Assembly: GCF_005885635.1 (NCBI RefSeq)
Contig: NZ_VATY01000002.1
Coordinates: forward strand, 1 to 64,000
Source of the DNA: Maribacter algarum (ex Zhang et al. 2020)
GTDB taxonomy: Bacteria; Bacteroidota; Bacteroidia; Flavobacteriales; Flavobacteriaceae
Direction of reading: 5' to 3'
DNA: 64,000 bases
Part shown: one piece after another, positions 42,728 through 57,615 of the stretch
Layout of the letters: every line of letters begins with the position of its first letter
Position numbering within the stretch: position 1 is the stretch's first letter
Program-made: the position numbers and the translations under genes
Notes under the pieces: generated by a model
What the model was told of the DNA's origin: nothing
Databases searched by the model: none
What the model saw: the letters and a program-made list of their open reading frames with translations, nothing else

Positions 42728-42797
42728 CCACTCGTCTACAGAAAATGTTTACCGACCTTTTCTCAATCAAATAGGATTGCAAACCATATTATATTTG
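42728..42797 (+). promoter_or_regulatory. Shared -54 element and promoter of the 36-residue membrane protein gene
   Basis: CTACAGAAAATG begins at 42736, continuing to CCGACC at 42752-42757. The perfect -7 box TATATTTG (42790-42797) starts exactly 54 bp after the first C of CTACAG. Over 22 gap-free positions it agrees with the site at 50130 at 17 places. CGTC (42733) and CGAC (42753) form half-sites 20 bp apart. Confidence 0.68.
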
Positions 42798-42834
42798 AGG
42801 TATAAATAGATGTTTAACCTTAAATCTAAATATT

Positions 42835-42945
42835 ATGAAAACGTTTATTCTTGTTTCAACTTTGAAGATTTTAGTAACCGGACTTAAAACTGTCATCAGT
42901 ACTACCGTCGTTGGAGTGGCTTTCGCCATAGCCGGTTTACTATAA
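42835..42945 (+). CDS. 36-residue hydrophobic membrane miniprotein
   Basis: The frame starts with ATG and reads MKTFILVSTLKILVTG, then a hydrophobic segment (TTVVGVAFAIAGLL) up to the TAA stop. It would form a single inner-membrane helix or a hydrophobic hairpin. A perfect -7 box lies about 38 bp upstream, and a strong hairpin follows the stop. A good promoter, tight leader and terminator flank it, so it is probably real. It sits immediately after the NO-phosphorelay operon, with the promoter element shared with exopolysaccharide genes. No family is recognised. It may modulate a membrane complex. Confidence 0.62.
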   Translation: MKTFILVSTLKILVTGLKTVISTTVVGVAFAIAGLL

Positions 42946-42963
42946 TAGTCTTTCTTATATGAT

Positions 42964-42989
42964 AACAAGCGCCAAATAAGGCGCTTGTT
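42964..42989 (+). terminator. Hairpin terminator after the miniprotein gene
   Basis: A perfect 10-bp stem AACAAGCGCC (42964-42973) with GGCGCTTGTT (42980-42989) lies 18 bp after the stop. The following T content is modest (TGTCTTTG), so termination efficiency is uncertain. Confidence 0.65.
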
Positions 42990-43069
42990 GTGTCTTTGTA
43001 CTTTAGACCAAAGGTTTTTAAAACAATGGTTGTACAAGTACACATTTGACTTGAGCTGATTTCTAATTA

Positions 43070-43168
43070 TATATGGGCTCATACCCCATGCACTTCCTTT
43101 TAAATTTGGGACGGGGGAGTGCCTACAGCAAAGAACAATCTTACATATTTGTTAGGTTGTTCTTTTTT
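43070..43168 (+). ncRNA. Candidate structured small RNA ending in a terminator
   Basis: Three successive hairpins: ATGGG/CCCAT (43073-43089), GCACTTCC/GGGAGTGC (43090-43122, one wobble) and AGAACAA/TTGTTCT (43132-43163), the last followed by a T-run (to 43168). The dense local GC in an AT-rich gap and the terminal T-run suggest an RNA gene or 3'-derived RNA. No known RNA family is recognised, and no clear own promoter was found. Confidence 0.3.
43132..43168 (+). terminator. Rho-independent terminator
   Basis: AGAACAA (43132-43138) pairs with TTGTTCT (43157-43163), followed by TTTTT. It is the 3' end of the candidate RNA, or of a longer transcript from the miniprotein gene. Confidence 0.55.
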
Positions 43169-43342
43169 ATTTACGGCAAACGATTATTTTACCTTAGCTT
43201 CTGTTCATGATTGAAATATAAAGAATGGGTAAAGTTTAAAAAATCTATCTCGTTTTAGTTACAGTGTAATTGTGATGGACTAAAATAATTATCAACCCAA
43301 AAGAATAATAGCAAGAAATACAGGCATAATTATGGAGCTAAA

Positions 43343-43366
43343 GGTATGACGATTCGAAATCATACC
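43343..43366. repeat. Inverted repeat, possible operator
   Basis: GGTATGA (43343-43349) and TCATACC (43360-43366) flank a 10-base centre that itself contains TTCGAA. No T-run follows. It lies just beyond the 3' end of the TPR/barrel gene and could be a transcript-end hairpin or an operator. Confidence 0.4.
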
Positions 43367-43476
43367 AGGAGTTACCGAGGCAGGAATTAATTGTGAGAAC
43401 TAAATGTCATTGTATAATTGAAGAGTTCCTAAATAGAAACCAATCAATACTAACCTATTAAACCGTTACCTTATTT

Positions 43477-45528
43477 TCATTGCACTGAAAACAAAGGTCT
43501 TTTCATGAACAACCATTTCAACTTTAAGCCTATCTCTGTGAACTCAAAACCTGCTGCCGTGGCAGAGGCAATGTTACTGTATTTACCATACAAGTTTGTA
43601 CTCAATCGTTTAGAGAACTGATGTTGTAAGGCCCCCTCCGCTCGAAATATAGGCGTATTGGGGTCGCTTTCTACTCGTTGGTATCCGGTTGCCGCACTCG
43701 CGATATAACTGGTTTTTTCCGAAAACTTACCGCGTATATCGGCGAATAGTTCTACAGCTTGGTATTCGGCTGGACTAAAGTATATGGTAGGTACTTGGTC
43801 TTGAAAGGAGATGTACTGATAATTAACTCCCATTTTTAAAGCCGGCTTTTGACTTAGGGTATAGTACAAAGAGGTAAACAAAAGGTTTCTCGTATTGGCA
43901 TCACTTTGCTGAGTGTACATTAATTGCGTGTACCACCCTAAATTGAAGTTGGTACCTAAATTATAATTGAGTCCGTAATGGTTTTGTACAATTTCACGTT
44001 CAATAAGATCTGCATTAAAATTCTGTACCTCACGTTGATAACCCAAAGCCAAATTTTGCAGTTTTAAGGGTTGTAGATTCAGCTTGACGTCCAATACAGG
44101 TTGTGTATAAGCTTCAGTCATAAACCGGGAATTGTTCAAACCCACCACCGTTTTTAAAGTAGTTTTAGGTAGTAACTTGAATTGTAACCCTGCCAATACC
44201 ACATGGGAACTGGCTTGATTTCCTGTAACAGTGTTTTCCGTATTTCTATAGAAATACGAAACTGTAGTTCGAAACTTGGTAGACAAAGCAATATCTGCAG
44301 TAGTGTTTGTGTAGAATGCTATATTATCCCCATTGTCAAAAGTATAGGCTGCATGTTCCTCTATACTGGGGGTATACATTACATCTAATTTTTCGATAAA
44401 ACCCTTGGCATCTTTTTGGTTCTTATAAATGGACAAAGTTTTAAAAGCTGCCCTATAGGCGGGTATAATTCTGTCGGAAGCAAAAAGTGCGTTGGCCTTT
44501 CCTAGATTGCCGTCAAAGGATGTACTATCTTTTGTCAGGATAGCCTCATATTCTTTTACGCTGACTTTGGTGTCTCCAGTGTAAAGTCCCAAGGTGGCTC
44601 TGAGAGCATGAATCCAGTTGCGTTTGGGATAGACAGTTTCTAAACTATCGATTTGTGTTTTGGCCTTTCTGAACTTTCGATTCCAAATCAAGGCTTGCAC
44701 GAATCTATCATAGGTGCGTTCTGTCAGTTCGTAATCCTCAAAACGATGTACTTTGCTAATGGCGGCTGAGGCTATGTTCAAAGCTTGTTTATCATTTTCC
44801 GCAATATGCTCCGCCAAACTGATACCGTTCAAAGCAGTAATAGAATCAATCGGTGTAGTAGCGTATCTGGCATATACGGTTTTGGCGCTATCGGTTTGTT
44901 TGGTAATCAAATGTATATTGGCCAAGTTCAATAAAGCATCTTTATCCTTGGGAAAGTCATTAAAGATTTTTTTGAGTAAAGCCTTCCCTGTACTATAATC
45001 TTGATTATTTACATATTGATTTGCATATCCCAATCGCATAAACTTTCTGGAAACGAGTGCACTTGGATTTTCAGGTTGAAGTTGAAGCGCTTTTTCCAAC
45101 CATCTTAGGGCTTCCTGATACTCTTTTAAATTACTAAGAGTGTTGGCATAACCTAAAATTGCTCCAAACTTGTTCGGGTAATCGATGACCATCTTGGCAT
45201 ACAAGGGTTTTGCGACTTCATATTGCTTATTCCAGAGAAAGGACTCATTATAGTTTATGGCGATTTCAAAATCATTGGGGTAGGTCTGAAGTAGTCCTGC
45301 GAATATGGCTGTTGCTTTTTGAGGTTCACCGCTTAAGCCGACTGCCCTTCCATAGCAGATTTGTGCGGTTTTATTCAAAGGCTCTTCTTTTAAAGTGTTT
45401 TTAAAGAAGGTTTTGGCAGCTGCAAATTCACCTTTTTCCAAAAAATCAAACCCCTTTTGCATATCACTTTGCCCAAAAACATATGAGGTGCTAAATATGA
45501 TGACAAGTAGATTAAATAGTTTTTTCAT
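43477..45528 (-). CDS. TPR and outer-membrane beta-barrel protein (polysaccharide export type)
   Basis: 683 residues. Signal peptide (LLVIIFSTSYVFG), then about 10 tetratricopeptide repeats (residues 25-385; for example GYANTLSNLKEYQEALRWLEKALQLQPENPSALV). A C-terminal YaiO-like beta-barrel (about 400-683) has many amphipathic strands (FRTTVSYFYRN, FNLGWYTQLMYTQQ). A periplasmic TPR scaffold fused to an outer-membrane pore is the layout of PgaA, BcsC and PelB export proteins. It is divergent from the first receiver-glycosyltransferase gene, so it is the probable outer-membrane exporter of the polysaccharide made by this locus. Confidence 0.82.
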   Translation of the reverse strand: MKKLFNLLVIIFSTSYVFGQSDMQKGFDFLEKGEFAAAKTFFKNTLKEEPLNKTAQICYGRAVGLSGEPQKATAIFAGLLQTYPNDFEIAINYNESFLWNKQYEVAKPLYAKMVIDYPNKFGAILGYANTLSNLKEYQEALRWLEKALQLQPENPSALVSRKFMRLGYANQYVNNQDYSTGKALLKKIFNDFPKDKDALLNLANIHLITKQTDSAKTVYARYATTPIDSITALNGISLAEHIAENDKQALNIASAAISKVHRFEDYELTERTYDRFVQALIWNRKFRKAKTQIDSLETVYPKRNWIHALRATLGLYTGDTKVSVKEYEAILTKDSTSFDGNLGKANALFASDRIIPAYRAAFKTLSIYKNQKDAKGFIEKLDVMYTPSIEEHAAYTFDNGDNIAFYTNTTADIALSTKFRTTVSYFYRNTENTVTGNQASSHVVLAGLQFKLLPKTTLKTVVGLNNSRFMTEAYTQPVLDVKLNLQPLKLQNLALGYQREVQNFNADLIEREIVQNHYGLNYNLGTNFNLGWYTQLMYTQQSDANTRNLLFTSLYYTLSQKPALKMGVNYQYISFQDQVPTIYFSPAEYQAVELFADIRGKFSEKTSYIASAATGYQRVESDPNTPIFRAEGALQHQFSKRLSTNLYGKYSNIASATAAGFEFTEIGLKLKWLFMKRPLFSVQ

Positions 45529-45616
45529 TATTTGAAAGTAAAATAAGACAAGTATAGAACGCCTTTATGTAAGATTTATTGGTGTTTTATTCGGATATAA
45601 AGTTAAGGGTGGCTTT

Positions 45617-45677
45617 CAAATATTCAATCGTATGAATATCAGGGGTCTACCTACAGAAATTGGTTATTGGTCGATAG
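45617..45677 (-). promoter_or_regulatory. Candidate shared element and promoter for the TPR/barrel gene
   Basis: Read on the minus strand, CTATCGACC begins at 45677 and AATATTTG (-7 with one mismatch) begins at 45624, 53 bp on, against 54 bp at the four better sites. Read on the plus strand the same DNA starts CTACAGAAAT (45651), an even closer match to the element, but no -7 box is found 54 bp further. Orientation is therefore unresolved. Confidence 0.38.
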
Positions 45678-45823
45678 TGCATTAAAAAAAAAGTCAATAT
45701 TGAAAAAGAAATGTCCTTAAAATAAAGCCTTTAACAAGAATGTTAAAATATTGGTGATTTGGTCGAAGACCTTAGCAGTTGAACAATATGTAAGTTTAAA
45801 AAATGTTAGGTATAGGAAAAAAC

Positions 45824-45850
45824 ACACAATTTTTAATTTGGAAATTGTGT
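45824..45850. repeat. Inverted repeat in the leader of the receiver-glycosyltransferase gene
   Basis: ACACAATTT (45824-45832) and AAATTGTGT (45842-45850) are perfect 9-base arms around a 9-base loop. It lies 42 bp before the ATG at 45892. It could be an operator or an RNA hairpin affecting expression. Confidence 0.45.
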
Positions 45851-45891
45851 AAGTCCTATTGAAAACCAATTTTTTAACCAAAAAATATTTT

Positions 45892-47028
45892 ATGAAAATT
45901 CTTACGATTGATGATCAGACGTTAATTCTACTATCTGTGGAGAAAAAGCTACAAGAGATGGGATATGAAGTACGAACGGCAAGCACGGGTGAAGAAGGAA
46001 TAGCGTTATTCAAAACCTTTCAACCAGATTTGGTTTTAGTAGATATCAATATGCCCAATATGAATGGCATAGATGTGGTTAAAAAAATCAAAAGTATAGA
46101 GAAGCGACAAACTCCCATTTTGGTAATGTCAGGAAATACCAATGAGGATGTCATCATGGAGGGTTTTGAACTAGGAGTTGATGATTACATGAAGAAACCT
46201 GTGAGTTTAAATGAGATGGTAGCCAGAATTAAAAGACTGATTGGTAGTCCTGAAACAAACACTATCCAAAATAACCCTGAGGCAAGAATGCTCCAAAAGC
46301 ACTGTGTTGGGGTGGTCATTCCCTGTTACAATGAAGCGGAAAGGCTATCTAGTACTGAATTCAAGGACTTTGCACACCGGAATTTGGGATATCATCTATG
46401 TTTTGTAAATGATGGAAGCACCGATAATACCTTGGAGGTTTTAGAAGAACTAAAATCTGGAAATGAAGAAAATATAAGTATTTATGATTGCGTGCAAAAT
46501 GGCGGTAAGGCTGAGGCGGTAAGACAGGGCATTCTACACTTGGAGAAAGACTCACAGTTAGATTACATTGGTTTTTTAGATGCAGATTTATCGACGGATT
46601 TCAGGGATTTTGATGATTTGGTCCAAACCTTGGAGAATTCTGAATACAAAATTGTCAGTGGTTCAAGAATGAGTAGAATGGGAGCAGATATAACCAAAGA
46701 ATCCGCCAGGAAAATAATAAGTATGACGATTAATCTAATTATCAGGACAATACTTAAAATGCCTTTTAACGATACACAATGTGGTGCTAAGATTATGAAA
46801 AGGGATATAGTTAAAATGTTATTTACAAAACCATTTATTACCAAATGGCTCTTTGATGTTGAGCTGTTTATGAGAATGCGCAAACACTACGGCAAACAAG
46901 AGGTTAAGAAATTTATTTGTGAACAACCCTTGAAAAGATGGATTCATGCAGATGGTTCTAAGCTATCAATGAAAGACTCCATAAAAATTGTTGGTCAACT
47001 GGCCAAAATCGCCATCGCCTACAAATAA
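45892..47028 (+). CDS. Receiver domain fused to a GT2 (polyprenyl-phosphate sugar synthase-like) glycosyltransferase
   Basis: 378 residues. Residues 1-120 form a complete receiver: LTIDDQ, phospho-acceptor Asp51 (VLVDINMPNMNG), VMSGNT switch, Lys in MKKPVSL. Residues 135-378 are a GT2 domain of the dolichol-phosphate-mannose-synthase type: GVVIPCYNEAERL, FVNDGSTDNT, DXD in FLDADLSTD, SGSR, and TQCGAKIM. There is no C-terminal TM segment, so it is a soluble enzyme. Phosphorylation would directly control sugar transfer, probably to a polyprenyl-phosphate carrier. The ATG at 45892 gives the receiver's usual start. The upstream TTG at 45859 is rejected. A close paralogue (57681) bounds the other side of the locus. 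Confidence 0.93.
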   Translation: MKILTIDDQTLILLSVEKKLQEMGYEVRTASTGEEGIALFKTFQPDLVLVDINMPNMNGIDVVKKIKSIEKRQTPILVMSGNTNEDVIMEGFELGVDDYMKKPVSLNEMVARIKRLIGSPETNTIQNNPEARMLQKHCVGVVIPCYNEAERLSSTEFKDFAHRNLGYHLCFVNDGSTDNTLEVLEELKSGNEENISIYDCVQNGGKAEAVRQGILHLEKDSQLDYIGFLDADLSTDFRDFDDLVQTLENSEYKIVSGSRMSRMGADITKESARKIISMTINLIIRTILKMPFNDTQCGAKIMKRDIVKMLFTKPFITKWLFDVELFMRMRKHYGKQEVKKFICEQPLKRWIHADGSKLSMKDSIKIVGQLAKIAIAYK

Positions 47029-47068
47029 TACATTTTTACAAACGATTTAAACTTAAAATAAGGTTAAT

Positions 47069-48325
47069 ATGAAATTAGCTATTGTAACGGCGTACCCGCC
47101 CAGTAAGGTAACCTTGACCGAATATGGATATTATTTGGTAAAACACTTTAGACTTCACAAAGAAATAACTGAATTATATATACTCTCGGATTATACCAAC
47201 AAACCCAAAGATCTCGATTTTGAGGAGAATGGTTGCAGAATTATTGTAAAAGAATGTTGGTCATTCAACAGCTATACCAGTTTTTTCAAAGTAGCAAAAA
47301 CAATTTCATCGATAAAACCAGATGCTGTACTTTTTAACCTCCAATTCTTAAAATTCGGGGACAAGAAAATTCCGGCTGCCTTAGGACTCATCCTGCCGGC
47401 CTATTGCCGATTTAGAAGGATTCCCACGATTTCATTGTTGCATAATATTTTGGAACAAGTAGATTTAGAAAATGCAGGTTTTACCAAAAATAAACTGCTT
47501 CAAACGGCCTATAACTTCATAGGTACAAGCTTAACTCGTTTTGTTTTAAGTTCTGATGTCTTGGCCGTTACCATAAGTAAGTACGTTGATATTTTAGAGG
47601 AAAAGTACAATGCTCGAAATATTGCACTCATTCCACATGGTTCTTTCGAAACACCACCTGAACCGACTTATGAGCTACCTGAGGGACCCAAACAAGTTAT
47701 GGCTTTTGGTAAATTTGGCACCTACAAAAAAGTAGAGATTTTAATAGAGGCTGTTGAAATCATACGAAATCGTACCCAAGAAAATATTGAAATTGTAATC
47801 GCTGGTACTGATAGTCCAAATACGCCAGGATATCTAGAAGCTGTCAAAGAAAAGTACAAACATGTTCCTCAAATTCGATTTACAGGTTATGTTGCCGAAG
47901 AGGATGTGCCCCAAATATTTTCCGAAAGTGCTGTTAGTGTTTTTCCATATACATCTACCACTGGTAGTTCTGGAGTTCTGCACCAAGCCGGTAGTTATGG
48001 GAATGCCGTCGCTTTACCAGATTTAGGTGATTTGAGTATACTGGTAAAAGAAGAAGGATACATCGGAGAATTTTTTGAAGCCTCTAATGTTGAATCTTTA
48101 GCAAATGCAATACAAAAGATATTGACTGATGATCAATATCGCATATCGTTAGGAAAGGCTAATTACAAAGCCGCATGTTCTTTGCCAATGTCAGAAATCA
48201 CCAAAAAATATATCGATTACTTCAGTGCTATTCAAATTTCTAAGTCTAATGGTTTTCGATTTGAAATCGAAAAAAAGAAAATGGAGGATGAGGTAATAAT
48301 TGAAGAGGTATTGAATAATGAATAA
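47069..48325 (+). CDS. GT4 family glycosyltransferase
   Basis: 418-residue GT-B enzyme. The N-terminal Rossmann half starts LAIVTAYPPSKVTLTEYGYYL. The C-terminal half has VMAFGKFGTYKKVEILIEAV, VIAGTDSPNTPGY and RFTGYVAEEDVPQIF. In the usual E-x7-E donor site the sequence is TTGSSGVLHQAGSYG, so neither canonical Glu is in place, as in some other SSG-type GT4 enzymes. It would transfer a nucleotide-sugar residue to the growing repeat on the cytoplasmic face. It lies 40 bp after the receiver-GT2 gene. By eye it is about two-thirds or more identical to the GT4 at 50232. Confidence 0.9.
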   Translation: MKLAIVTAYPPSKVTLTEYGYYLVKHFRLHKEITELYILSDYTNKPKDLDFEENGCRIIVKECWSFNSYTSFFKVAKTISSIKPDAVLFNLQFLKFGDKKIPAALGLILPAYCRFRRIPTISLLHNILEQVDLENAGFTKNKLLQTAYNFIGTSLTRFVLSSDVLAVTISKYVDILEEKYNARNIALIPHGSFETPPEPTYELPEGPKQVMAFGKFGTYKKVEILIEAVEIIRNRTQENIEIVIAGTDSPNTPGYLEAVKEKYKHVPQIRFTGYVAEEDVPQIFSESAVSVFPYTSTTGSSGVLHQAGSYGNAVALPDLGDLSILVKEEGYIGEFFEASNVESLANAIQKILTDDQYRISLGKANYKAACSLPMSEITKKYIDYFSAIQISKSNGFRFEIEKKKMEDEVIIEEVLNNE

Positions 48326-48338
48326 AGAAAGAAAACCC

Positions 48339-48408
48339 CCATTGAACTACGGTAAGTCGTAATCCAACCCAAATTCAACTATTTTGAAAGGTAATCACTA
48401 GATATTTA
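48339..48408 (+). promoter_or_regulatory. Shared -54 element and promoter of the STAS-flippase pair
   Basis: CTACGGTAAGTC begins at 48347. GATATTTA (48401-48408, two mismatches to TAnnTTTG) starts exactly 54 bp later. Over 22 gap-free positions it matches the site at 50130 at 17, and the preceding CCCATT is identical in both. It gives the STAS and flippase genes their own regulated promoter within the operon. Confidence 0.6.
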
Positions 48409-48451
48409 CCTTGTAAATGAAACAAAAACTTAACCTATAAAATCAATAGTT

Positions 48452-48754
48452 ATGGCTTTACAAATAACAGAAACCAGAGGAATGTTTTCCGTTTTTGGAG
48501 AACTGAATAGTGCTAATGTCAACATCTTAGCTCGGCATATGCAAACGTATCTGAGCAACACAAACCCAGTAATATTGAATTTAGAAAGAGTAAAAAAATT
48601 AGATGTTACTGCGGCTCATATGCTCCGAGAAATGTATCACAGCGCCATGCGCGATAATAGTATTTTATCGATAGTCGGATTAAGTAATTCCAATATTTTA
48701 GGGGTACTTAATAAAACAAAGACCTCATTTATTTTTAGTGATGACCGCATTTAG
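48452..48754 (+). CDS. STAS domain protein (anti-anti-sigma-like)
   Basis: 100-residue single STAS domain: beta strand ITETRGMFSVFGEL, LNLERVKKLDVTAAHMLREMY, ILSIVGLSN. In SpoIIAA-type proteins a Ser within Asp-Ser-Ser-Gly is phosphorylated. Here the position reads LDVTAA, so a Thr may take that place or regulation may be phosphorylation-free. No cognate Ser/Thr kinase or sigma factor is nearby. Its stop overlaps the flippase start by 14 bp. This tight coupling suggests it modulates the export machinery, as STAS domains do in some transporters. Confidence 0.8.
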   Translation: MALQITETRGMFSVFGELNSANVNILARHMQTYLSNTNPVILNLERVKKLDVTAAHMLREMYHSAMRDNSILSIVGLSNSNILGVLNKTKTSFIFSDDRI

Positions 48755-49979
48755 GATTTTTCTAACAAAGATTTCCCCTGAGAAGTTGTTCATGGGTAGT
48801 GTACTTCTGGTAAACGGAGGTAACTACCTATACAACTTGTTATTAGGGAGGTTATTGGGGCCAGAAGTATTTGCGGAAGCAGCACTTTTAGTAACATTAC
48901 TATTGGTATTGTCCTTTTTGGGAATGACCTTTCAATTGGCAACAGCAAAATTCGCTGTTCTCTTTTCAGGTACCGATTGGGATGCCTTTCAACAACTGAT
49001 GTATAAGTATGCTTTGGGATTTGGAATGTTGGTCGGAATTTTACTTTTTTCCTTCGCTGGAACTCTAAAAGATGTGTTTCAGACAGAATCAGCCTTGTTA
49101 TTTAAAACCTTTGCTGCTGCCGTTCCACTGTACTTTTTCATGTCGGTCAACCGTGGTAAATATCAAGGTCATCAAGACTTTACGAAACTATCAACTACGT
49201 ATCAAACAGAAATGTGGAGCCGGTTGTTATTAACATTAGTGCTACTATGGTTTGTTCCTGTTTCGCCCTCTTTTTTAGTTGCCCTGGGTATTGCGTTGTC
49301 TTTTGTTTTTGGTTTGATTCCGTCTAAGTTCGATGGAAAAAAAATATTCAGGAAAATATCCCTTGAAGCTTCAAAGAAAAAACAGGTCGTACGATTTATG
49401 GTATTAACGGCTTGTTACGAATTTACTCAGATCATAATCAACAATAGTGATGTGTTGTTAGTGAAACATTATTTTGATGCCATGGACGCAGGATTATATG
49501 CCTCTTTAGCCCTAATTGGTAGAGTGGTCTATTTTGTAGCATGGATGTTCGTAATGTTGTTGCTGCCAACTGTAGTTGAAAAAAAGAAAAATGGAGAGGC
49601 AACTGCCCCTGTACTTTTTAAATATGTGAGTTATATTGCTGTATTGTCATTTACGATTGTTGTGGCTTGTGCAATATTTCCAGAACTAATTATAGAAATA
49701 ATGTTTGGAAAAGCTTATTTAACGATGGCAACGCTATTATGGCAGTATGCACTTGCTACTTCCCTGTTTGCTGTGTCCAACATCTTTGCCTATTATTTTT
49801 TATCGTTGGATGAGTATACTCCGGTAATTGTATCTGGTCTTTTGGGTATATCGCAAATCGTATTAATAATGTTTTTCCATGCTAATTTGGCTATTGTAGT
49901 TCAAGTTCAAATCATTGCCATGGTAACTTTATTGATTGCTCAACTAATCTATTTCGCTCAGAAGAATATGAAAGCCTAA
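48741..49979 (+). CDS. Polysaccharide flippase-like (PST/MATE) membrane protein
   Basis: 412 residues with about 12 TM segments. Typical oligosaccharide-flippase features are LVNGGNYLYNLLLGRLLGPEVFAEAALL near the N-terminus and paired helices to the end. It probably moves lipid-linked intermediates, or a nascent chain, across the inner membrane. The ATG at 48741 is used. It overlaps the STAS gene and is followed by a strong terminator (50007). GT4 plus a PST-family protein plus a TPR/barrel protein recalls the Pel system in composition, but no PelD, PelE or PelA homologue is seen. Confidence 0.85.
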   Translation: MTAFRIFLTKISPEKLFMGSVLLVNGGNYLYNLLLGRLLGPEVFAEAALLVTLLLVLSFLGMTFQLATAKFAVLFSGTDWDAFQQLMYKYALGFGMLVGILLFSFAGTLKDVFQTESALLFKTFAAAVPLYFFMSVNRGKYQGHQDFTKLSTTYQTEMWSRLLLTLVLLWFVPVSPSFLVALGIALSFVFGLIPSKFDGKKIFRKISLEASKKKQVVRFMVLTACYEFTQIIINNSDVLLVKHYFDAMDAGLYASLALIGRVVYFVAWMFVMLLLPTVVEKKKNGEATAPVLFKYVSYIAVLSFTIVVACAIFPELIIEIMFGKAYLTMATLLWQYALATSLFAVSNIFAYYFLSLDEYTPVIVSGLLGISQIVLIMFFHANLAIVVQVQIIAMVTLLIAQLIYFAQKNMKA

Positions 49980-50120: not shown

Positions 50121-50191
50121 CCCATTCGACTACAGTAATTCTTTATCCACCGTAAAATATCAATAAAATAGGGCTTTTTGGGGGATATTTG
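50121..50191 (+). promoter_or_regulatory. Shared -54 element and promoter of the second GT4 gene
   Basis: CTACAGTAATTC begins at 50130. GATATTTG (50184-50191, one mismatch to TAnnTTTG) starts exactly 54 bp later. CGAC (50127) and CCAC (50147) are 20 bp apart. Upstream CCCATTCGA resembles the bases at the same place before 48347 and 42736. Confidence 0.68.
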
Positions 50192-50231: not shown

Positions 50232-51461
50232 ATGAGACTAGCAATTGTAACCGCATTTCCACCAAGTAAAGTTACCCTCACCGAATACGGATACCATTTG
50301 GTAAAACACTTTAGGCTTCAAAAAGAAGTAACAGAAATCATTTTGATTACAGATAAAACGGAAGGCGAAAAAGATTTATCTTTTGAAGAAGATGGTTGTA
50401 AAATTACAGTTCAAGAATGTTGGAATTTCAATAATTACGCAAACATTTTTAAAATCAACAGGGTCATTTCCAAAACCAAACCAGATGCAATACTCTTCAA
50501 TCTTCAATTTTTAAAATTTGGGGACAAAAAGATTCCTGCTGCATTGGGCTTAACGCTGCCTTTGATTTGCAAAATGAAAGGTATCCCCACTATTTCGCTT
50601 TTGCATAACATTATGGAACAAGTTGATTTGGATAATGCCGGAATAACCTCAAACAAATGGTTACAGCGTGCTTATAATTTAATAGGTAGCACATTGACAA
50701 AATTTGTGTTGACTTCTGATGTACTAGCAGTTACAATTAGTAAGTATAAAACCATTCTAGAAAAGAAATATAGGTCAAGAAACGTAGCGCTCATTCCTCA
50801 TGGTGCTTTTGAAACCCCACCAGAACCGGATTATCGCTTGGGGGATGGGCCGAAACAAGTTATGGCTTTTGGAAAATTTGGAACCTATAAAAAAGTCGAA
50901 ATATTGATAGAGGCAGTGGAATTGATTCGTGCAAGAACAAATGAGAATATCAAAATTGTCATAGCGGGAACAGATAGCCCGAATACTCCAGGGTATCTAG
51001 AATCCGTAAAAGAAAAATATCGCCATGTAGAGCAGTTGCAATTTACGGGTTATGTAGCAGAGGAAGATGTTCCCATAATTTTTGGCAAAAGTGCTGTTGT
51101 AGTTTTTCCATATACCTCTACGACAGGAAGTTCAGGAGTATTGCACCAAGCTGGAAGTTATGGAAAGGCAGTCGCTTTGCCCGATTTGGGGGACCTAAGT
51201 ATTTTAGTAAAGGAAGAGGGGTATAAAGGTGAATTTTTCAACCCCGAATGTTCTGCTTCTCTAGCTGTTGCATTGCAAAATATTTTACAGCATGATTCGT
51301 ATCGAATTCATTTAGGAATGACAAATTATAAAGCAGCATGTTCATTGCCGATGTCAGATATAACCAAAATGTACGTGGATTATTTCAAGGCCATTCATTT
51401 CTCTAAATCTACAGGTATGGAGTTGGATTTGACTGTCGAAGAATTAAAAGAAATAGTGTAG
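50232..51461 (+). CDS. GT4 family glycosyltransferase (paralogue)
   Basis: 409 residues, very similar along its length to the GT4 at 47069 (shared LFNLQFLKFGDKKIPAALGL and VMAFGKFGTYKKVEILIEAV). It has the same non-canonical TTGSSGVLHQAGSYG donor-site segment. The pair probably adds successive residues of the same type or links different positions in one repeat. It is monocistronic: it has its own promoter with the shared -54 element and a terminator at 51483. Confidence 0.9.
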   Translation: MRLAIVTAFPPSKVTLTEYGYHLVKHFRLQKEVTEIILITDKTEGEKDLSFEEDGCKITVQECWNFNNYANIFKINRVISKTKPDAILFNLQFLKFGDKKIPAALGLTLPLICKMKGIPTISLLHNIMEQVDLDNAGITSNKWLQRAYNLIGSTLTKFVLTSDVLAVTISKYKTILEKKYRSRNVALIPHGAFETPPEPDYRLGDGPKQVMAFGKFGTYKKVEILIEAVELIRARTNENIKIVIAGTDSPNTPGYLESVKEKYRHVEQLQFTGYVAEEDVPIIFGKSAVVVFPYTSTTGSSGVLHQAGSYGKAVALPDLGDLSILVKEEGYKGEFFNPECSASLAVALQNILQHDSYRIHLGMTNYKAACSLPMSDITKMYVDYFKAIHFSKSTGMELDLTVEELKEIV

Positions 51462-51482
51462 TAGTTTTTTTAGGTTAGGTTG

Positions 51483-51520
51483 AAGGGAGGCAGTTTGGTT
51501 AATTGTCTCCCTTTATTTAT
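51483..51520 (+). terminator. Hairpin terminator after the second GT4 gene
   Basis: AAGGGAGGCA (51483-51492 region) pairs with TGTCTCCCTT (51504-51513) with one wobble, followed by a TTTATTT tract. It may also serve the convergent hydrolase operon in part. Confidence 0.72.
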
Positions 51521-51616
51521 TGAACTAATGATTGATGAAATTTCTAGGGTATGTTCTTAATATTGAGCAGTTCAAAGTGTTTTTTTCGTCCTTTACTTTA
51601 TTGTAGTACGGCCAAT

Positions 51617-53155
51617 TTATGGACTTTGATTAAGCACATCAAATACTTTCTTTTTACTTCCTTTATAATCAAAACAACCAAAGTAATGTTGTTTTCTAGT
51701 ACGCCAAGGTAGACTTCCAGCAACGGCATTTGGTACCTCTTCAAAATCATAAAGAGTCCAAAATAGAAAAGGCACATTATTTTCTGCCAACTGTTTCTGC
51801 ATAGTTTTATAGTAGTCAACTTGCTCTTCTTCGCTACCTAGATATAAATTCCAAAAACCATCATATGAGGAGTAACCGTATTCCTGCAAAACTATTTGTT
51901 TGTTCTTAACCACTGATTTTAAGGTGTTGTGGGCCTCCAAAAAGTGCTCTGGTTCGCGATAATAGTGATACGAAACGAAGTCTACCTCTTCAGCTAAATG
52001 AATTGCCGCTTCAGGACTTGACCAACCTATGGTAACATGATGATTTGGGTCCCATTGCTTCATTTTGGTTGTCATTTCCTTGAGCCATGAAAGTACCCGG
52101 TTTTTCCCTCTACTATCAAAATCTAAATCTGGTTCATTTTTCACATCCCATCCCAATAAGGCAGGATGGTCTTTTAGACTGTTGACAATCGTTTCCGCAT
52201 GTCTTTGGGTAAGAGTCCAATTGGTAATATCGTAATCACCGTAAAAATCAAAAAGAGTAACCATTGCCTTTAAATCATTATTCTCTGCTAAATCTAGTAG
52301 GCTTTTAAGACGCTTTAGTTTTTCTGACGGGACATCTGCCTTGCCAAAGTCATCGTACTGAACAAATACCCGAATTGTATTTAACCCCATTCCTTTTATG
52401 ATTTCAAAATCTTTATTGATAATGGATTCATTGAATTTTTTCCCGAAAGTGTCCCATGGTGTATTCTTTGGATAATAATTAAGGCCTTTTACCTTTGTAA
52501 TACTAGCTAAAACCGAATCAAGATTTCTCTCTTTATTTTGTATACCATTTTGTTCTATCTCAAGTTCCTGAAGATGTCGAATTCTCCAAAAGCCATCTTC
52601 GAGCAACATCATTATTTGATAATTGGTGGTGTCTTTTTTATGAAGTAATAGTGAATCTTTGTTATAAGTTTCTTGATATCGTTCAACATTTTTATCAGTG
52701 AAAACAACCAGTGTACCATCTTCGCTATAGAAGTCCAATTCAGGGTAATGACTCAAGGTAGTTTCCTTAAAAAAGATTTTGTTTTTGATATTTAGGTCTA
52801 TATGTTCGAATATTCGAATTCGCGCACTATCCGTATAAAAATCAGATATTCCATATACATCGTTATCCTTTAAAGCAATATTACGAACGTGCCAGGCATT
52901 GAGATAATCTCTTTCAATTTCCTGCAAAGTTTGTTTTTCCATGGGTCTTCCAGGATTATCCAGATTCCCCCAAACAACTTTGGGAGCATACACTTTTTCC
53001 ATGGGTTCTTCGAGATGCAAAATCGAAGCTTTGTCCGCACCAGTATTCAAATAAGATAGAACTGCACTTATTCCGGCAATTATTAAACCATTGATGGCAA
53101 GAAAAGAAGCCACCAAGAGTACACGATAGATATTTTTAGTTAATTTATTCTTCAT
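51617..53155 (-). CDS. Membrane-anchored clan GH-A glycoside hydrolase
   Basis: 512 residues. N-terminal TM anchor (about 12-34), then an NTF2-like region (about 75-195: YLNAWHVRNIALKDNDVYGI ... LLEDGFWRIRHL). The TIM-barrel hydrolase (about 215-510) has the acid/base Glu in GWDVKNEPDLD and the nucleophile Glu in IVLQEYGYSS. The barrel faces the periplasm. GH-A enzymes tethered in exopolysaccharide loci (for example PslG) trim or release polymer during export, and that role fits here. It is the last gene of a three-gene operon with the lipoprotein (11-bp overlap) and the GT-C protein. Confidence 0.88.
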   Translation of the reverse strand: MKNKLTKNIYRVLLVASFLAINGLIIAGISAVLSYLNTGADKASILHLEEPMEKVYAPKVVWGNLDNPGRPMEKQTLQEIERDYLNAWHVRNIALKDNDVYGISDFYTDSARIRIFEHIDLNIKNKIFFKETTLSHYPELDFYSEDGTLVVFTDKNVERYQETYNKDSLLLHKKDTTNYQIMMLLEDGFWRIRHLQELEIEQNGIQNKERNLDSVLASITKVKGLNYYPKNTPWDTFGKKFNESIINKDFEIIKGMGLNTIRVFVQYDDFGKADVPSEKLKRLKSLLDLAENNDLKAMVTLFDFYGDYDITNWTLTQRHAETIVNSLKDHPALLGWDVKNEPDLDFDSRGKNRVLSWLKEMTTKMKQWDPNHHVTIGWSSPEAAIHLAEEVDFVSYHYYREPEHFLEAHNTLKSVVKNKQIVLQEYGYSSYDGFWNLYLGSEEEQVDYYKTMQKQLAENNVPFLFWTLYDFEEVPNAVAGSLPWRTRKQHYFGCFDYKGSKKKVFDVLNQSP

Positions 53156-54374
53156 CGAACGTCACTTCAAACTCTTTGATAATACCTGCTGCCTTACAAA
53201 TAAAACGATATGAACCATCTGGATAAAATTCCTTCGGAAGCTCTATTTTTCCCAAACCTTTGATTGAACTTACTTTTTTGGTTTCTAAGTACTGACCAGT
53301 TTCAGAAAAAATTTCCAACTGAATCAAAATACCGTCAGGCACTAATTGATCCATAAAGCTCACCAAAGGCCCAACAGTAATTAGTCTATTGTTTTCTGAG
53401 AATTCATAAGGATAGTCGGTAATCGCTGTATCAAAATTAATGCTTAGCGAATTGCTTTTTGCAGCGCCGGTTATATAGGCATCTATCTGCCATTCCTCTT
53501 TTTCGGAAGGATGTAATATTGATGCTTTCGCGATTCCATTAATTGTAGGTGCCATAGACTTTAAAATGGCTCCTTTTGAATTTTTGATTATGAAATTTAC
53601 CATTGTACCATCACCGACTATATTATTATACTTGTCTTGAATGATACCACTACGCAATACCATAATTTGATTGCCGTCGGCAAATGCGTGATTGCGATCC
53701 GTCTCAATTTCGAAGGCTTCCCCCAAAGTAGGAAAGACAATTGTTGTCAATTCTTTAGATGTAATGTTCTTGAAAGAAGTATTAACTAAAATCCTACCTG
53801 ACTTCGTGGTAGAATAAATATTTTTCCATGAAATTAAGTCTTTTGAAGGAACTGTATATTCTGAAATTGAATTTAAAAATTGTGATTTGAAAATCACTTC
53901 TGTTCCTTCAGGATAGACATTGTCAAAAGGGTCCGTAGTGACATTTACGAGCATTGAATAGTCCTGAATTCCGGCTGTAATACTTCGTGGCCCAAAATAG
54001 GTTTCCAGTGTCGCCCGAGCACTTGTTTTCGGTTCTATTCTAAACGAATCTTTTAAAAGTTGTTCTCCATTTGCTACTAAAATCCAATGGCAAGGTCCGG
54101 TTTTTCGGCTAAAGTTTTTTGGAATCGCAAAATGTAATTTGTTTTTATCCTTTATCGGTGTCAACACCGAATTGCCAAAGGCGTTCGAGATGAGCAAATA
54201 AATCTCGTTAGTCGATTCAGTTTCAAATGACAAATCAATTTTATCTCCAGCCACATAAGTTTTTTGATGCTGAAGTAATTCTACACTTTGATTTTCAACT
54301 TCGTACGTATGTTTTTCATTGCTTGCGCAAGAAACAAAACAGAGAAAAACACTAAATAAGTATATCAGTCTCAT
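53145..54374 (-). CDS. Lipoprotein with Ig-like beta domains
   Basis: 409 residues. ATG at 54374 gives a lipoprotein signal (MRLIYLFSVFLCFVSCAS, Cys16). A longer start at 54410 would overlap the upstream gene. The remainder is beta-rich, with repeated Ig/invasin-like strands (YVAGDKIDLSFETES, VPDGILIQLEIFSETGQYLETK) and no catalytic motif. It begins 1 bp after the GT-C stop and overlaps the hydrolase gene by 11 bp, so the three products probably act together in the envelope. It may bind the polymer or scaffold the complex. Confidence 0.78.
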   Translation of the reverse strand: MRLIYLFSVFLCFVSCASNEKHTYEVENQSVELLQHQKTYVAGDKIDLSFETESTNEIYLLISNAFGNSVLTPIKDKNKLHFAIPKNFSRKTGPCHWILVANGEQLLKDSFRIEPKTSARATLETYFGPRSITAGIQDYSMLVNVTTDPFDNVYPEGTEVIFKSQFLNSISEYTVPSKDLISWKNIYSTTKSGRILVNTSFKNITSKELTTIVFPTLGEAFEIETDRNHAFADGNQIMVLRSGIIQDKYNNIVGDGTMVNFIIKNSKGAILKSMAPTINGIAKASILHPSEKEEWQIDAYITGAAKSNSLSINFDTAITDYPYEFSENNRLITVGPLVSFMDQLVPDGILIQLEIFSETGQYLETKKVSSIKGLGKIELPKEFYPDGSYRFICKAAGIIKEFEVTFDEE

Positions 54375-54375
54375 A

Positions 54376-57300
54376 TTAATTTGGATTTCCGATATAACTA
54401 TTAATATCAAACTTTAAGAAAGAATATCCTTTGCCTGCATAGGGCTGAAGCTGGGCATGTCCGTGTGAATAATCACGTCTTGGAAATACTTTTTTGGTAA
54501 TGGATTCGTTGGGTAGTCCGTTTACAAAACAGTTCTCAAGACTACTCTCGATAATACATAATTCGACTACAACAAGGGGTTGATAGTTGAAAAATTGTTT
54601 TCGTTGTACCCTTACACCTTCATCTAGGAATTGATGGTCGACCCATAGCAATTCATGTTTGTCATCATAATAGGATACCAACAGCTGTGGTATAGTAACT
54701 TCCTGTATTCCTCCATTATACAAGCTTCCATTAATTCCGTAATCTGAGAATTCGAGATTCTGAAGTGCAACACTTTTATATAAATCGGTATTTGCAACAT
54801 TACCTGCGGACTGCAAATTAAATTTTACAGGTTGTTCATCTAATGCTATGGGTGTAAAATGGTCAGGGTCAAACGTTGGTGGCATGGTATCTTTAGTAGA
54901 AGACCATGCGATGCCCTCAAAGTTGATTTTAAATGGAGTGGTCTCCTTAGGCATTAGTTTATGCTTCATATGATATTTTGCGTTGTGGACCGCAAGTTCT
55001 TCATCAACATCATTATAAAGAGTGGCCTTTATAACCACATCTGCTGGTACATCATCAACATTTTGTAATTCACCAATTATACTATACTGTCCTTTGTACT
55101 TAACAAGTTTCGCGGCTAATATTTCCAGTACCGGTTGTTTAAGAACATCTTCATGATGAGTTTGTTGCGTAGTGATCTTTCGCCTACCATGATTGTAAAA
55201 AGTGGTCGAATTTGTTATAAATAATTGGTCGGGAGGAATATCGCTATCTTTTTTCTTTGGTTTTATATACCATTTTCCGGAGTCTTTGATTAACTCATGA
55301 AAATAGTCTTTCTTGATTTTTTCCAAAGGAGTTATCCAGGTTGTGCTCACCTTTGCTTTGGCACCCGCTTGGCTTATATCTATAATATCGATTCCAATAG
55401 AGTCTAACTTTGCATAAGAACTTAGGATGCCGTCGGTCACTGAAACTTCCAACATATATTGATCTATGGTAACTTCGGCCTCCGGGTCAAGATACGAGTG
55501 AGCTCGCTTGAATTCTTTGAAGTCCAACGCATCGTAATAAGACTGAACAACGTTTTTGGGCGAAAGTTGAGCTGTGTTTTTTATGTAAAATGCATAGAGA
55601 CCGAAAACAAGACAGGCTAAAATTACAACTGCCCAAACATGACTTATAATAATTAGTCTTTTAGAAAAACTGTTATATGCTACCGATAGTTTCAAAAAGT
55701 TAGGTGCTTCGCCTTTTCGAGCTCTTAATTTTCGTAACCAAAGCATCATAATATTGATAACAAAGGCTAATATTACCGTGAGTATAGGTATTGTACCCCA
55801 CATAATATTCAAGAAAAGGGGCGTTTTTTCCTTAGGGAGTATTTCTGGTAATGGAGGCACATTGAGTTTTTCCCAAACCATAATTCCATTTTCCAATTGC
55901 TGTAATCTTTGCCAGCCACAGAAATATAGAATGGGATCATAGAATTTATCGTTGGAAAAAATATATTTCAAATTATACTTTTCAGGCACAGTTAAAAATT
56001 GTTGTAATGAACCAATACCTTCTACTCCTCTGAATTTTGAATTTTCAATACGCTCGATTGCTCTTGTGGTAAGTTCTGGTAATCTGCGGGCAGAATGATA
56101 ATTTCCATCAACAGTCATTGCATTTGTTTGGGCACTAAGCCAAGCCATTTGATCTCCAAAACCCAAGGGCAAATAGCGCCATGAGTCGTGCGAATCTTGA
56201 CTAAGGAAATTAACGATGGGCAACATTTTGATTTTACTTGGTTGCGACGGCCTGAAATATCCTAGTGTCATTGTGAAACCTACCATTAGAAGCAGACCTC
56301 CGGCAAGTGAACCCCCTAAAATTCGGTGATAAACCCTGCCCAACATACCTTGAATTCTGTCTTTAAGATCACCTTCGGTCATACGAAAGGCAAATTCTCC
56401 AAATATAGGTAAGGCCATGATAGTTGCCCACAAGGTAAACCTATCTAGGGTTAGTATATTAAAGGCTGTTTCTCCTAATAATTTCAGAGGAATGGGGGTG
56501 GTTCCACCCGTTCCTAGTAAGGTGAGTGCTGAAAATGACAGACCAAAAAACATATAGCGCTTGCTATAAAATCGATACAGTATATAGGGCAGTATAAACA
56601 ATAGAATTCCCCATGGAATGACAAAGAATACCAACCCGGAAGAAGTAACTTCCAAAAAGTTATCTCTTGAGCCATGTGGAATAGGCACTTGGGTTATCGG
56701 ATTTCTTTTTGAATTATACCAGTAAGGTAATATGCAAGTGATAATTAACATCAACGAACAACCGCCAAAGACCACAATTCTCCAGAAGCAACTTTTAAAT
56801 GCTTTGTAAAAAACTTTGAACGATACCCGTTTCATCGTTTCAACCTTTTCACGAGCTTCATCCATTACCGCCATTCCCAAAAGCGGGAAGATGAAAAAAA
56901 CCATCCCGAAAATTGGTGTAACGTGGTGTGAAGTTACCGTAACAGCTATCAAAGAAAGTGATGACACCAAGTATCGGCGCTTACCTGTTTTGGTCCAGAG
57001 GTAAATTTCAGGCATGGCATGGAGCAAAATAGATAATGCACAAACACTAGGTAATTGCCCAAAAATGTGTAATGTTTCTATGAAAGTTGAAGAAAAAACA
57101 GCCAATAATGCGGTATATCCAGCAACTCTTCTATTGCCCGTGAGGAGTAGTGCAAATCGATAAATACCTGTAATAAAAAGAATAATACCTATTATGGCTA
57201 CAGTAAACATGCCGAACTTTAAGCCTCCTATATAAGATAAAAGCCCTATGGTTTGATGAATTAAGGGAGGGTATGATTGCACAGTAAAGCCCGTATACCA

Positions 57301-57471
57301 GCTATAATCCCAGGGTTCGAACCAATCCGCGGCATAATGACTTGCAAAAAAAAGGTGTATTAAGGCGTCATAAGTATATTCTAGTGTAAAGAATATACTA
57401 GACCCATGAAAGGCAAGCCCTATTATTAGGGCCAAAATCAGCAGAGTATTGGTCTTTTTAAGCGCTTCCAT
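54376..57471 (-). CDS. Giant GT-C-type membrane protein
   Basis: 1031 residues. The N-terminal half (1-430) has about 10-12 TM helices. Its first periplasmic loop contains an acidic motif (LEYTYDALIHLFFASHYAADW, followed by FEPWDYSWY), as in GT-C glycosyltransferases that use polyprenyl-phosphate sugars. A soluble periplasmic segment (about 430-550) and two more TM helices (about 555-580 and 605-630) follow. Then comes an NTF2-like domain (about 640-750: SPKNVVQSYYDALDFKEFKRA) and a C-terminal beta domain. It could be the polymerase or a side-branch transferase using the product of the DPM-like GT2 fusions. It is the first gene of the minus-strand operon and divergent from the second fusion gene. 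Confidence 0.75.
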   Translation of the reverse strand: MEALKKTNTLLILALIIGLAFHGSSIFFTLEYTYDALIHLFFASHYAADWFEPWDYSWYTGFTVQSYPPLIHQTIGLLSYIGGLKFGMFTVAIIGIILFITGIYRFALLLTGNRRVAGYTALLAVFSSTFIETLHIFGQLPSVCALSILLHAMPEIYLWTKTGKRRYLVSSLSLIAVTVTSHHVTPIFGMVFFIFPLLGMAVMDEAREKVETMKRVSFKVFYKAFKSCFWRIVVFGGCSLMLIITCILPYWYNSKRNPITQVPIPHGSRDNFLEVTSSGLVFFVIPWGILLFILPYILYRFYSKRYMFFGLSFSALTLLGTGGTTPIPLKLLGETAFNILTLDRFTLWATIMALPIFGEFAFRMTEGDLKDRIQGMLGRVYHRILGGSLAGGLLLMVGFTMTLGYFRPSQPSKIKMLPIVNFLSQDSHDSWRYLPLGFGDQMAWLSAQTNAMTVDGNYHSARRLPELTTRAIERIENSKFRGVEGIGSLQQFLTVPEKYNLKYIFSNDKFYDPILYFCGWQRLQQLENGIMVWEKLNVPPLPEILPKEKTPLFLNIMWGTIPILTVILAFVINIMMLWLRKLRARKGEAPNFLKLSVAYNSFSKRLIIISHVWAVVILACLVFGLYAFYIKNTAQLSPKNVVQSYYDALDFKEFKRAHSYLDPEAEVTIDQYMLEVSVTDGILSSYAKLDSIGIDIIDISQAGAKAKVSTTWITPLEKIKKDYFHELIKDSGKWYIKPKKKDSDIPPDQLFITNSTTFYNHGRRKITTQQTHHEDVLKQPVLEILAAKLVKYKGQYSIIGELQNVDDVPADVVIKATLYNDVDEELAVHNAKYHMKHKLMPKETTPFKINFEGIAWSSTKDTMPPTFDPDHFTPIALDEQPVKFNLQSAGNVANTDLYKSVALQNLEFSDYGINGSLYNGGIQEVTIPQLLVSYYDDKHELLWVDHQFLDEGVRVQRKQFFNYQPLVVVELCIIESSLENCFVNGLPNESITKKVFPRRDYSHGHAQLQPYAGKGYSFLKFDINSYIGNPN

Positions 57472-57544
57472 TGTAGGAAATTATAACAAAATAAAGGTAT
57501 TAATATTGTATGGATAGGCAGTTATCAACTAACGTCACAAAACT

Positions 57545-57615
57545 GCATTTTAACTATCGAAAATTACTACTCGACGCTACGGGACCAAAATGGACATAAA
57601 ATCGATATACATTTG
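57545..57615 (+). promoter_or_regulatory. Shared -54 element and promoter of the second receiver-GT2 gene
   Basis: CTATCGAAAAT begins at 57554. The perfect -7 box TACATTTG (57608-57615) starts exactly 54 bp later. CTA, GAAAAT and TAC agree with the 42736 site in register. Three 10-bp-spaced units TCGAC (57571), GGGAC (57581) and TGGAC (57591) follow, the third overlapping the -33 region, which lacks TTG. Confidence 0.66.

What the first reader, a model, noticed from the sequence alone, without database searches (positions are those of the whole stretch)
42728..57615. Four promoters in the exopolysaccharide locus share an element exactly 54 bp from the -7 box
CTACAG (42736), CTACGG (48347), CTACAG (50130) and CTATCG (57554) each start exactly 54 bp before a -7-like box (42790, 48401, 50184, 57608). 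Two of the pairs agree at 17 of 22 gap-free positions, and all carry CGAC/CCGAC-like half-sites about 20-21 bp apart. The genes served are a membrane miniprotein, STAS-flippase, a GT4 and a receiver-GT2 fusion. Identical spacing in four otherwise unrelated leaders points to one activator, by gene content most likely the LytTR regulator at 41995-42705.
Basis: partly seen in the sequence, partly recalled or inferred. Interest (0 to 1): 0.85.

Follow-up and report, generated by a model that had tools for sequence, protein, structure and literature searches.

The report
LytTR-type switch for exopolysaccharide genes
Several promoters of a marine bacterium's slime-making gene cluster carry the same paired DNA tag at one fixed distance from the start site, and relatives tend to have that tag when they have one neighbouring regulator gene, so this regulator most likely switches the cluster, and its own genes, on together.

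Summary
The element is part of a tandem repeat, CCATTC[AG]TCTACAG-N7-CCAYYC[AG]YC, period 21 bp, with the -7 box 62 bp after its first base. A profile from the same relatives, run over the whole 5.1-Mb genome, has its four best hits and five of its best six in this locus. In relatives 64 of 76 sites have TTTG of the box at +62 or +83 (=62+21). Across 199 genomes the element tracks the ortholog of the LytTR regulator at 41995-42705 (76 both, 7, 6, 110 neither). In two genomes where that gene lies on another contig, the polysaccharide locus has no sites and the LytTR surroundings do. The geometry is that of published LytTR sites. No binding or transcription data exist here. Best reading: a LytTR-activated, self-regulated exopolysaccharide regulon with a probable H-NOX/phosphorelay input. 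New member of a known kind.

The parts
38574..38624 (+). Tandem CCATTCGTC-like half-sites (38574, 38595) upstream of the regulator operon; -7-like box GAGTTTTG at 38657-38664, exactly +62 from 38595
   Evidence: Blind matrix 21.1 and 16.6 bits; whole-genome rank 4, E 0.0054; sequence; sites directly before this operon's first gene in 8 of 8 relatives' stretches, all fetched because they had a hit, and in 3 of the 4 loci that contain that gene
38692..39093 (+). Stand-alone receiver (RR1)
   Evidence: PF00072, 77.9 bits
39169..39711 (+). H-NOX haem protein (probable NO/O2 sensor)
   Evidence: PF07700, 132.2 bits; phmmer E 5.7e-61 to PDB 6bde, the His-rich stretch and Y-x-S-x-R kept in the alignment (residue roles recalled)
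39698..41671 (+). PAS-domain histidine kinase without a receiver match
   Evidence: PAS (three stretches), HisKA and HATPase_c matches
41673..41993 (+). Probable Hpt phosphotransfer protein
   Evidence: PF01627, 19.9 bits, below its cut-off of 24.6; no PDB match up to E 1
41995..42705 (+). LytTR response regulator, proposed activator
   Evidence: PF04397 70.1 bits (cut-off 22.6) and PF00072 67.9 bits; match at E <= 1e-60 in 83 of 199 family genomes, own included
42728..42757 (+). Direct repeat, 21-bp period
   Evidence: 27.3 bits, rank 2 of the blind window scan; whole-genome rank 2, E 1.5e-9
42790..42797 (+). -7-like box TATATTTG at +62
42835..42945 (+). 36-aa hydrophobic miniprotein ORF, followed by a hairpin at 42964-42989
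   Evidence: Sequence; no Pfam or NCBIfam match at E <= 0.001; similar-looking small ORFs behind LytTR in 2 of 18 loci, L032 and L035 (likeness judged by eye)
45643..45672 (+). Degenerate direct repeat upstream of the first receiver-GT2 gene (45892-47028); no box at +62
   Evidence: 12.1 bits; genome rank 16, E 0.32
48339..48368 (+). Direct repeat
   Evidence: 17.6 bits; whole-genome rank 3, E 0.0018
48401..48408 (+). -7-like box GATATTTA at +62
48452..48754 (+). STAS-domain protein
   Evidence: PF01740, 35.2 bits
48738..49979 (+). Polysaccharide flippase-like protein
   Evidence: PF13440, 43.3 bits
50122..50151 (+). Direct repeat (best-scoring site of the genome)
   Evidence: 30.3 bits; whole-genome rank 1, E 1.1e-11
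50184..50191 (+). -7-like box GATATTTG at +62
50232..51461 (+). GT4-like glycosyltransferase (GT4b)
   Evidence: PF13692, PF00534
57546..57575 (+). Direct repeat, weakest of the four, with a register 21 bp upstream at 57525
   Evidence: 9.1 and 9.0 bits; whole-genome hit 57559-57625, rank 6, E 0.013
57608..57615 (+). -7-like box TACATTTG at +62
57681..58820 (+). Receiver-GT2 fusion (RGT2b)
   Evidence: PF00072 and PF00535

Best explanation
The element is the binding site of the LytTR response regulator at 41995-42705. Two regulator subunits bind two direct repeats 21 bp (two helical turns) apart, centred about 60 bp upstream of the start, and recruit or stimulate RNA polymerase at a sigma-A promoter that has a -7 box but no -33 element. 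This switches on the STAS/flippase operon, the GT4b gene, the second receiver-GT2 gene, the miniprotein and the regulator's own operon. Upstream, an H-NOX haem protein probably controls the neighbouring histidine kinase, and phosphate passes by the stand-alone receiver and Hpt to the LytTR receiver. Shown by computation: sites, repeat period, spacing, conservation, near-confinement to this locus in the own genome, co-occurrence with LytTR and presence beside it where it lies elsewhere. Inferred: binding, activation (not repression), phosphorelay order, gas signal, that the product is an exopolysaccharide.
For: Blind matrix from relatives finds these promoters first in the window. Profile over the own genome: top 4 and 5 of top 6 hits in this locus. 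Fixed box position: TTTG at +62 or +83 in 64 of 76 relatives' sites and, on scanning the 40 loci whole, in 76 of 104; in 65 further loci 112 sites (0 in one shuffled copy of each locus), 75 with TTTG at +62 against 8 or fewer at any other offset scanned (four of these loci, L106-L109, are close relatives of the window itself). 0 of 104 sites lie inside tblastn-matched genes, which hold 59% of the bases. LytTR co-occurrence, proximity and strand, other LytTRs as control, G172 and G011. Geometry: several published rows with 9-bp repeats and a 12-bp spacer give 42 bp from the second repeat to the -10 (my sums); here 42 bp if the 9-mer is counted from the base before CC, 41 from CC. AgrA repeats are centred near -60; here about -60 if the start is 12 bp after the box's first base (box -12 to -5). 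Left half-site 7.2 of 9 identical on average to AlgR's CCGTTCGTC. TTG at offsets +36 to +44 (-33 region) in 0-2 of 64 sites per offset. Own-operon sites in relatives. H-NOX gene within 5 kb upstream of LytTR on its strand in 19 of 20 genomes (places).
Against: No experiment. Two of 40 loci keep LytTR but have no site over 20 bits (L034, L051). 7 LytTR-positive genomes lack the element and 6 LytTR-negative ones have a hit, best E 2.9e-5. Site 57546 is weak and 45643 has no box. 12 of 76 sites and 28 of 104 lack TTTG at +62/+83. The right half-site is much less like AlgR's (4.5 of 9). The genomes are related, so the Fisher p-values overstate independence. Of 139 hits on a LytTR contig 7 lie far from it, and 11 of the 150 listed hits could not be placed. 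In G172 and G011 LytTR sits apart from the kinase and Hpt, so that input is not obligate. The Hpt match is below its Pfam cut-off.
Confidence: 0.88

Rival explanations
1. Another LytTR-family protein of the same genome binds these repeats, and the neighbouring gene is only linked to the locus.
For: LytTR proteins share repeat geometry, and flavobacterial genomes hold many (5-32 matches in each of 20 genomes).
Against: Those 20 genomes have other LytTRs and no element. The element tracks this one ortholog and lies beside it, not at the polysaccharide locus, in two genomes.
Confidence: 0.05
2. The four elements are a chance resemblance among AT-rich leaders.
Against: Blind recovery, 0 sites in shuffled held-out loci against 112 real ones, fixed spacing in relatives.
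Confidence: 0.01
3. The repeat is read by another kind of factor (different DNA-binding class, or part of an alternative-sigma promoter) that happens to be inherited with LytTR.
For: No binding data; gene neighbourhoods are inherited together.
Against: Period, half-site and distance match LytTR. Among the 16 proteins scanned with Pfam between 38692 and 58820 no other DNA-binding domain was listed (three of the 16 had no match at all). Polysaccharide, kinase and Hpt genes without LytTR have no element (L037, L038).
Confidence: 0.04
4. The LytTR protein binds here but represses these promoters.
For: Direction cannot be read from sequence.
Against: Sites sit upstream of the promoter, not over it; no -33 TTG is kept; LytTR regulators bound at such places are described as activators, whereas the repressing AgrA site lies downstream of its promoter.
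Confidence: 0.05

Closest known systems
LytTR direct-repeat promoters (AgrA P2/P3; HdrR/BrsR and other LRS promoters)
   Same: About 9-bp direct repeats with 21-bp period; 42 bp from second repeat to -10 element in several published rows (PMC6193735 passages and tables; sums mine); centre about -60 (PMC4227749 passages); self-regulation.
   Different: Flavobacterial -7 box (TAnnTTTG type) without -33; regulator with a receiver in a phosphorelay-like operon; targets are polysaccharide genes.
AlgR of Pseudomonas aeruginosa
   Same: LytTR regulator of exopolysaccharide genes; site CCGTTCGTC (PMC4064291 passages) against CCATTC[AG]TC here.
   Different: AlgR sites are not necessarily repeats 12 bp apart and can act far from the start; orthology not tested.
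Bacteroides LRS-like operons (B. thetaiotaomicron, B. ovatus)
   Same: LytTR-type repeats upstream of a TATCTTTG box in the same phylum.
   Different: 11-bp repeats, 11-bp spacer, other sequence, LytTR proteins with transmembrane segments, described for their own operon promoters.
H-NOX/histidine kinase biofilm circuits (Shewanella, Vibrio)
   Same: H-NOX protein next to a kinase that feeds a biofilm programme (PMC6769237 passages).
   Different: There the outputs are c-di-GMP or LuxU/LuxO routes; here a LytTR regulator with direct promoter sites (inferred).

Membership tests
LytTR-regulated promoter/regulon | Regulator with LytTR DNA-binding domain | tested here: met
   PF04397 70.1 bits, cut-off 22.6
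LytTR-regulated promoter/regulon | Two direct or inverse repeats of 9-11 bp with 11-13 bp between | tested here: met
   Direct repeat, period 21; definition from passages of PMC4847170
LytTR-regulated promoter/regulon | Fixed placement just upstream of the promoter | tested here: met
   64 of 76 sites with TTTG at +62/+83; 41-42 bp from second repeat to box, against 42 in several published rows
LytTR-regulated promoter/regulon | Protein binds the repeats | not testable with these tools
   Only co-occurrence and co-location
S. mutans-type LytTR regulatory system (LRS) | Soluble LytTR regulator in an operon with an inhibitory membrane protein (absence of a receiver recalled) | tested here: not met
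   Regulator has a receiver; the 36-aa ORF has its own site and similar-looking ORFs follow LytTR in only 2 of 18 loci
AlgR-type regulator | CCGTTCGTC site | tested here: inconclusive
   Left half-site 7.2 of 9, right half-site 4.5 of 9 identical on average; protein orthology not tested
Multistep phosphorelay | Kinase, receiver, Hpt, receiver with phospho-sites | tested here: inconclusive
   All four gene types adjacent; Hpt below cut-off; no transfer test possible
H-NOX sensor | H-NOX domain with haem His and YxSxR | tested here: met
   PF07700 132.2 bits; alignment to 6bde; residue roles recalled

The most novel reading that the evidence does not exclude
A gas-sensing H-NOX protein drives a self-amplifying phosphorelay whose LytTR end-point directly turns on an exopolysaccharide assembly programme in marine Flavobacteriaceae (loci found in Maribacter, Zobellia, Cellulophaga, Arenibacter and others), so that NO or oxygen sets whether cells encase themselves; the miniprotein and other genes behind LytTR are exchangeable accessory outputs of the same switch.
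Probability: 0.4. Interest if true: 0.75.

Novelty: new member of a known kind. Interest (0 to 1): 0.62.

Why it matters
It gives a defined candidate binding site, a named candidate regulator and a short list of targets for a polysaccharide locus shared by many marine flavobacteria; my searches of an open-access library listed no paper that describes this circuit (listings only). It predicts start sites to the base, makes the H-NOX question testable with one reporter, and suggests that LytTR promoter geometry known from other phyla holds with the Bacteroidota -7 box.

Tried and rejected
A strict IUPAC pattern over 199 genomes matched in only 5 and missed the window's own sites; replaced by a profile. 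The off-locus own-genome hit C17:147469 (rank 5, E 0.0065) has no repeat (best matrix score on the matched strand of its 3-kb locus 0.5) and was rejected; ranks 7-15 were checked the same way and none exceeds 10.3 bits; ranks below 16 were not checked. A conserved -33 element was looked for and not found. Chance resemblance, another LytTR, a non-LytTR factor and repression were considered and set aside as stated under rivals. The miniprotein as a conserved core partner was rejected: the site behind LytTR is followed by different genes in different genomes. LRS-type filing rejected (receiver present). Passages on F. psychrophilum start sites, a F. johnsoniae LytTR mutation and H-NOX showed no matching regulon.

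Rows dropped and limits: 8 of the 84 regions selected scored 20 bits or less and were left out of the spacing count; 12 of 76 without TTTG at +62/+83 were left out of the profile. One search covers the 150 hits that one search listed, not all hits; 11 of these 150 were on a contig other than the LytTR contig or in G147, whose LytTR place I had not entered. One search used the tool's stricter filters, which lose weak matches. In one search the stretch kept was too short to see a box at +83, so 75 of 112 counts +62 only; the 65 loci are those of 75 in which one 60-base probe did not match the training loci. My count of 44 receiver-GT2 genomes leaves out two full-length matches at 38-39% identity (G113, G117). 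One search counts as inside a gene only sites within tblastn-matched genes, with 20 bases of margin. The half-site and period averages use 64 sites (left) and the 48 at +62 (right, period).
Full report
WHAT WAS CLAIMED. Four promoters in an exopolysaccharide-type locus share an element 54 bp before a -7-like box, and a nearby LytTR regulator was proposed as activator.

CHECK. The sequence holds exactly what was described: CTACAG/CTACGG/CTACAG/CTATCG at 42736, 48347, 50130 and 57554, boxes 54 bp further on. Pair identities of 17 of 22 hold for two of six pairs; the rest are 11-13. Since the elements were chosen by eye, I tested them with information that does not come from this genome.

BLIND TEST. 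The receiver-GT2 fusion was searched in 199 genomes of the family; my count of full-length or contig-edge matches from that listing is 44, the own genome included and two at 38-39% identity left out. Forty loci from 39 other genomes were fetched and mapped by tblastn. Motif learning on 152 regions of these relatives (upstream of the target genes, or behind LytTR) gave CCATTC[AG]TCTACAG-N7-CCAYYC[AG]YC from 84 selected regions. Applied to both strands of the window, that matrix ranks: 50122 (30.3 bits), 42728 (27.3), 38574 (21.1) with 38595 (16.6), 48339 (17.6), 45643 (12.1) and 57546 (9.1); three more of the top ten are the same sites in a register 21 bp upstream; the next unrelated hit is 7.6. 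A sequence profile of 64 relatives' sites, gap-free over 82 columns, searched over the whole own genome gives as best hits 50122 (E 1.1e-11), 42726 (1.5e-9), 48339 (0.0018), 38595 (0.0054), an off-locus stretch without the repeat (0.0065) and 57559 (0.013). As far as this search sees, the element is confined to this locus; its first-look filter may lose weak sites.

SPACING. Among 76 relatives' sites above 20 bits, TTTG of the box stands at +62 in 48 and at +83 in 16, the latter being cases where the matrix picked a register one repeat (21 bp) further upstream; 12 have neither. In 65 further loci from the genome collection in which a 60-base probe did not match the training loci there are 112 sites, none in one shuffled copy of each, 75 of them with TTTG at +62 and at most 8 at any other offset scanned. 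L106-L109 among them are close relatives of the window (87-99% identical receiver-GT2). Scanning the 40 training loci whole, 104 sites lie outside and 0 inside matched genes, which make up 59% of the bases; 76 of the 104 have TTTG at +62 or +83. The repeat period is 21 bp (48 sites, mean identity 0.546, other shifts at most 0.35). No TTG is kept in the -33 region (0-2 of 64 per offset from +36 to +44).

WHICH REGULATOR. The LytTR gene next door (PF04397 70.1 bits, receiver 67.9 bits) has matches at E <= 1e-60 in 83 of 199 family genomes, own included. The profile hits 82 of the 199 at E <= 0.001. Both: 76; LytTR only: 7; element only: 6, with best E from 2.9e-5 to 9.1e-4; neither: 110 (Fisher p 6e-39, or 4e-24 without the 39 training genomes, ignoring relatedness). 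Of 150 listed hits, 139 are on a LytTR contig, 132 of these within -12 to +45 kb and all 132 on the LytTR strand, 7 far away; 14 start within 400 bp behind the LytTR gene and 10 lie upstream of it; the other 11 could not be placed relative to LytTR. Twenty examined genomes without ortholog and element have 5-32 matches each to the LytTR domain family, so LytTR proteins in general do not explain it. Two genomes are a natural experiment. In G172 and G011 the polysaccharide locus has kinase and Hpt genes but no LytTR, and no stretch there exceeds 14 bits (L037, L038); LytTR sits on another contig, and there sites reach 38.1 and 40.4 bits (L200, L201). In G172 the H-NOX gene stayed near the polysaccharide locus. 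In G100 LytTR and the polysaccharide locus are 2.3 Mb apart and both have sites, so adjacency is not needed. Counter-cases: L034 and L051 have LytTR but no site above 20 bits.

SELF-REGULATION. The site at 38574/38595 lies before the first gene of the gene row RR1, H-NOX, kinase, Hpt, LytTR, with a GAGTTTTG box at +62 from 38595. In relatives three of four loci that contain RR1 have a strong site before it (L040, L047, L069, not L051), as do all eight further RR1 upstream regions, which were fetched because they had a hit.

MECHANISM. Counting the 9-mer from the base before CC, the second repeat starts 42 bp before the box (41 from CC). Several published LytTR promoters with 9-bp repeats and a 12-bp spacer, for example 10 bp to the -35 and 17 bp on to the -10, give the same 42 bp (PMC6193735, passages and tables; sums mine; other rows differ by a few bases). 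Flavobacterial boxes lie at -12 to -5 (PMC9723704, passages), which puts the repeat centre near -60, as reported for AgrA (PMC4227749, passages). The left half-site resembles AlgR's CCGTTCGTC (PMC4064291, passages; 7.2 of 9), the right one less so (4.5 of 9). I infer activation in which LytTR bound at -60 makes up for the missing -33 contact. The H-NOX gene keeps the residues of a working sensor (roles recalled) and lies within 5 kb upstream of LytTR in 19 of 20 genomes (places; the exception is G172), so a gas-to-phosphorelay input is plausible but unproven; the Hpt call is weak.

TARGETS. STAS/flippase, GT4b, receiver-GT2b, the 36-aa ORF and the regulator operon. The 36-aa ORF has similar-looking small ORFs behind LytTR in 2 of 18 loci (L032, L035; by eye); elsewhere the site behind LytTR precedes secreted-looking proteins, a STAS-like protein, a GT4-like protein or a lipoprotein-like protein with a CAP-like segment (names from reading the translations, not from a family search). 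The site before receiver-GT2a (45643) lacks a box at +62 and is probably decayed.

LITERATURE. Searches for LytTR with exopolysaccharide, Flavobacter, H-NOX, Bacteroidetes and TAnnTTTG, for H-NOX with Bacteroidetes, and for Zobellia with exopolysaccharide and response regulator (open-access library, titles and abstract starts of the listed papers only) listed no paper that describes this regulon.

VERDICT. Observation confirmed, interpretation supported, kind of system known, regulon apparently undescribed.

Noticed in passing
38692-42705: Row of receiver, H-NOX, PAS histidine kinase, Hpt-like and LytTR genes, with H-NOX within 5 kb upstream of LytTR in 19 of 20 relatives: a likely gas-sensing phosphorelay.
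   Followed up: partly
45892-48325 and 50232-51461, 57681-58820: Duplicated genes: two receiver-GT2 fusions (68% identical) and two GT4s in one locus; only the second copies have a site with a box.
   Followed up: partly
54376-57471: 1031-aa membrane-like protein without any Pfam or NCBIfam match at E <= 0.001, yet 61-76% identical in the relatives' loci where it was found.
   Followed up: no
L037, L038 against L200, L201: In two genomes LytTR lies away from the polysaccharide locus, with a receiver gene and another flippase-like gene (and a GT4-like gene in L200), sites included.
   Followed up: yes
L181-L192: The site behind LytTR is kept in position but followed by different genes in different genomes, as if the slot were exchangeable.
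   Followed up: partly
42964-42989 and 43130-43166: Hairpins that look like terminators after the 36-aa ORF and in the following intergenic stretch (seen; not tested by folding).
   Followed up: no
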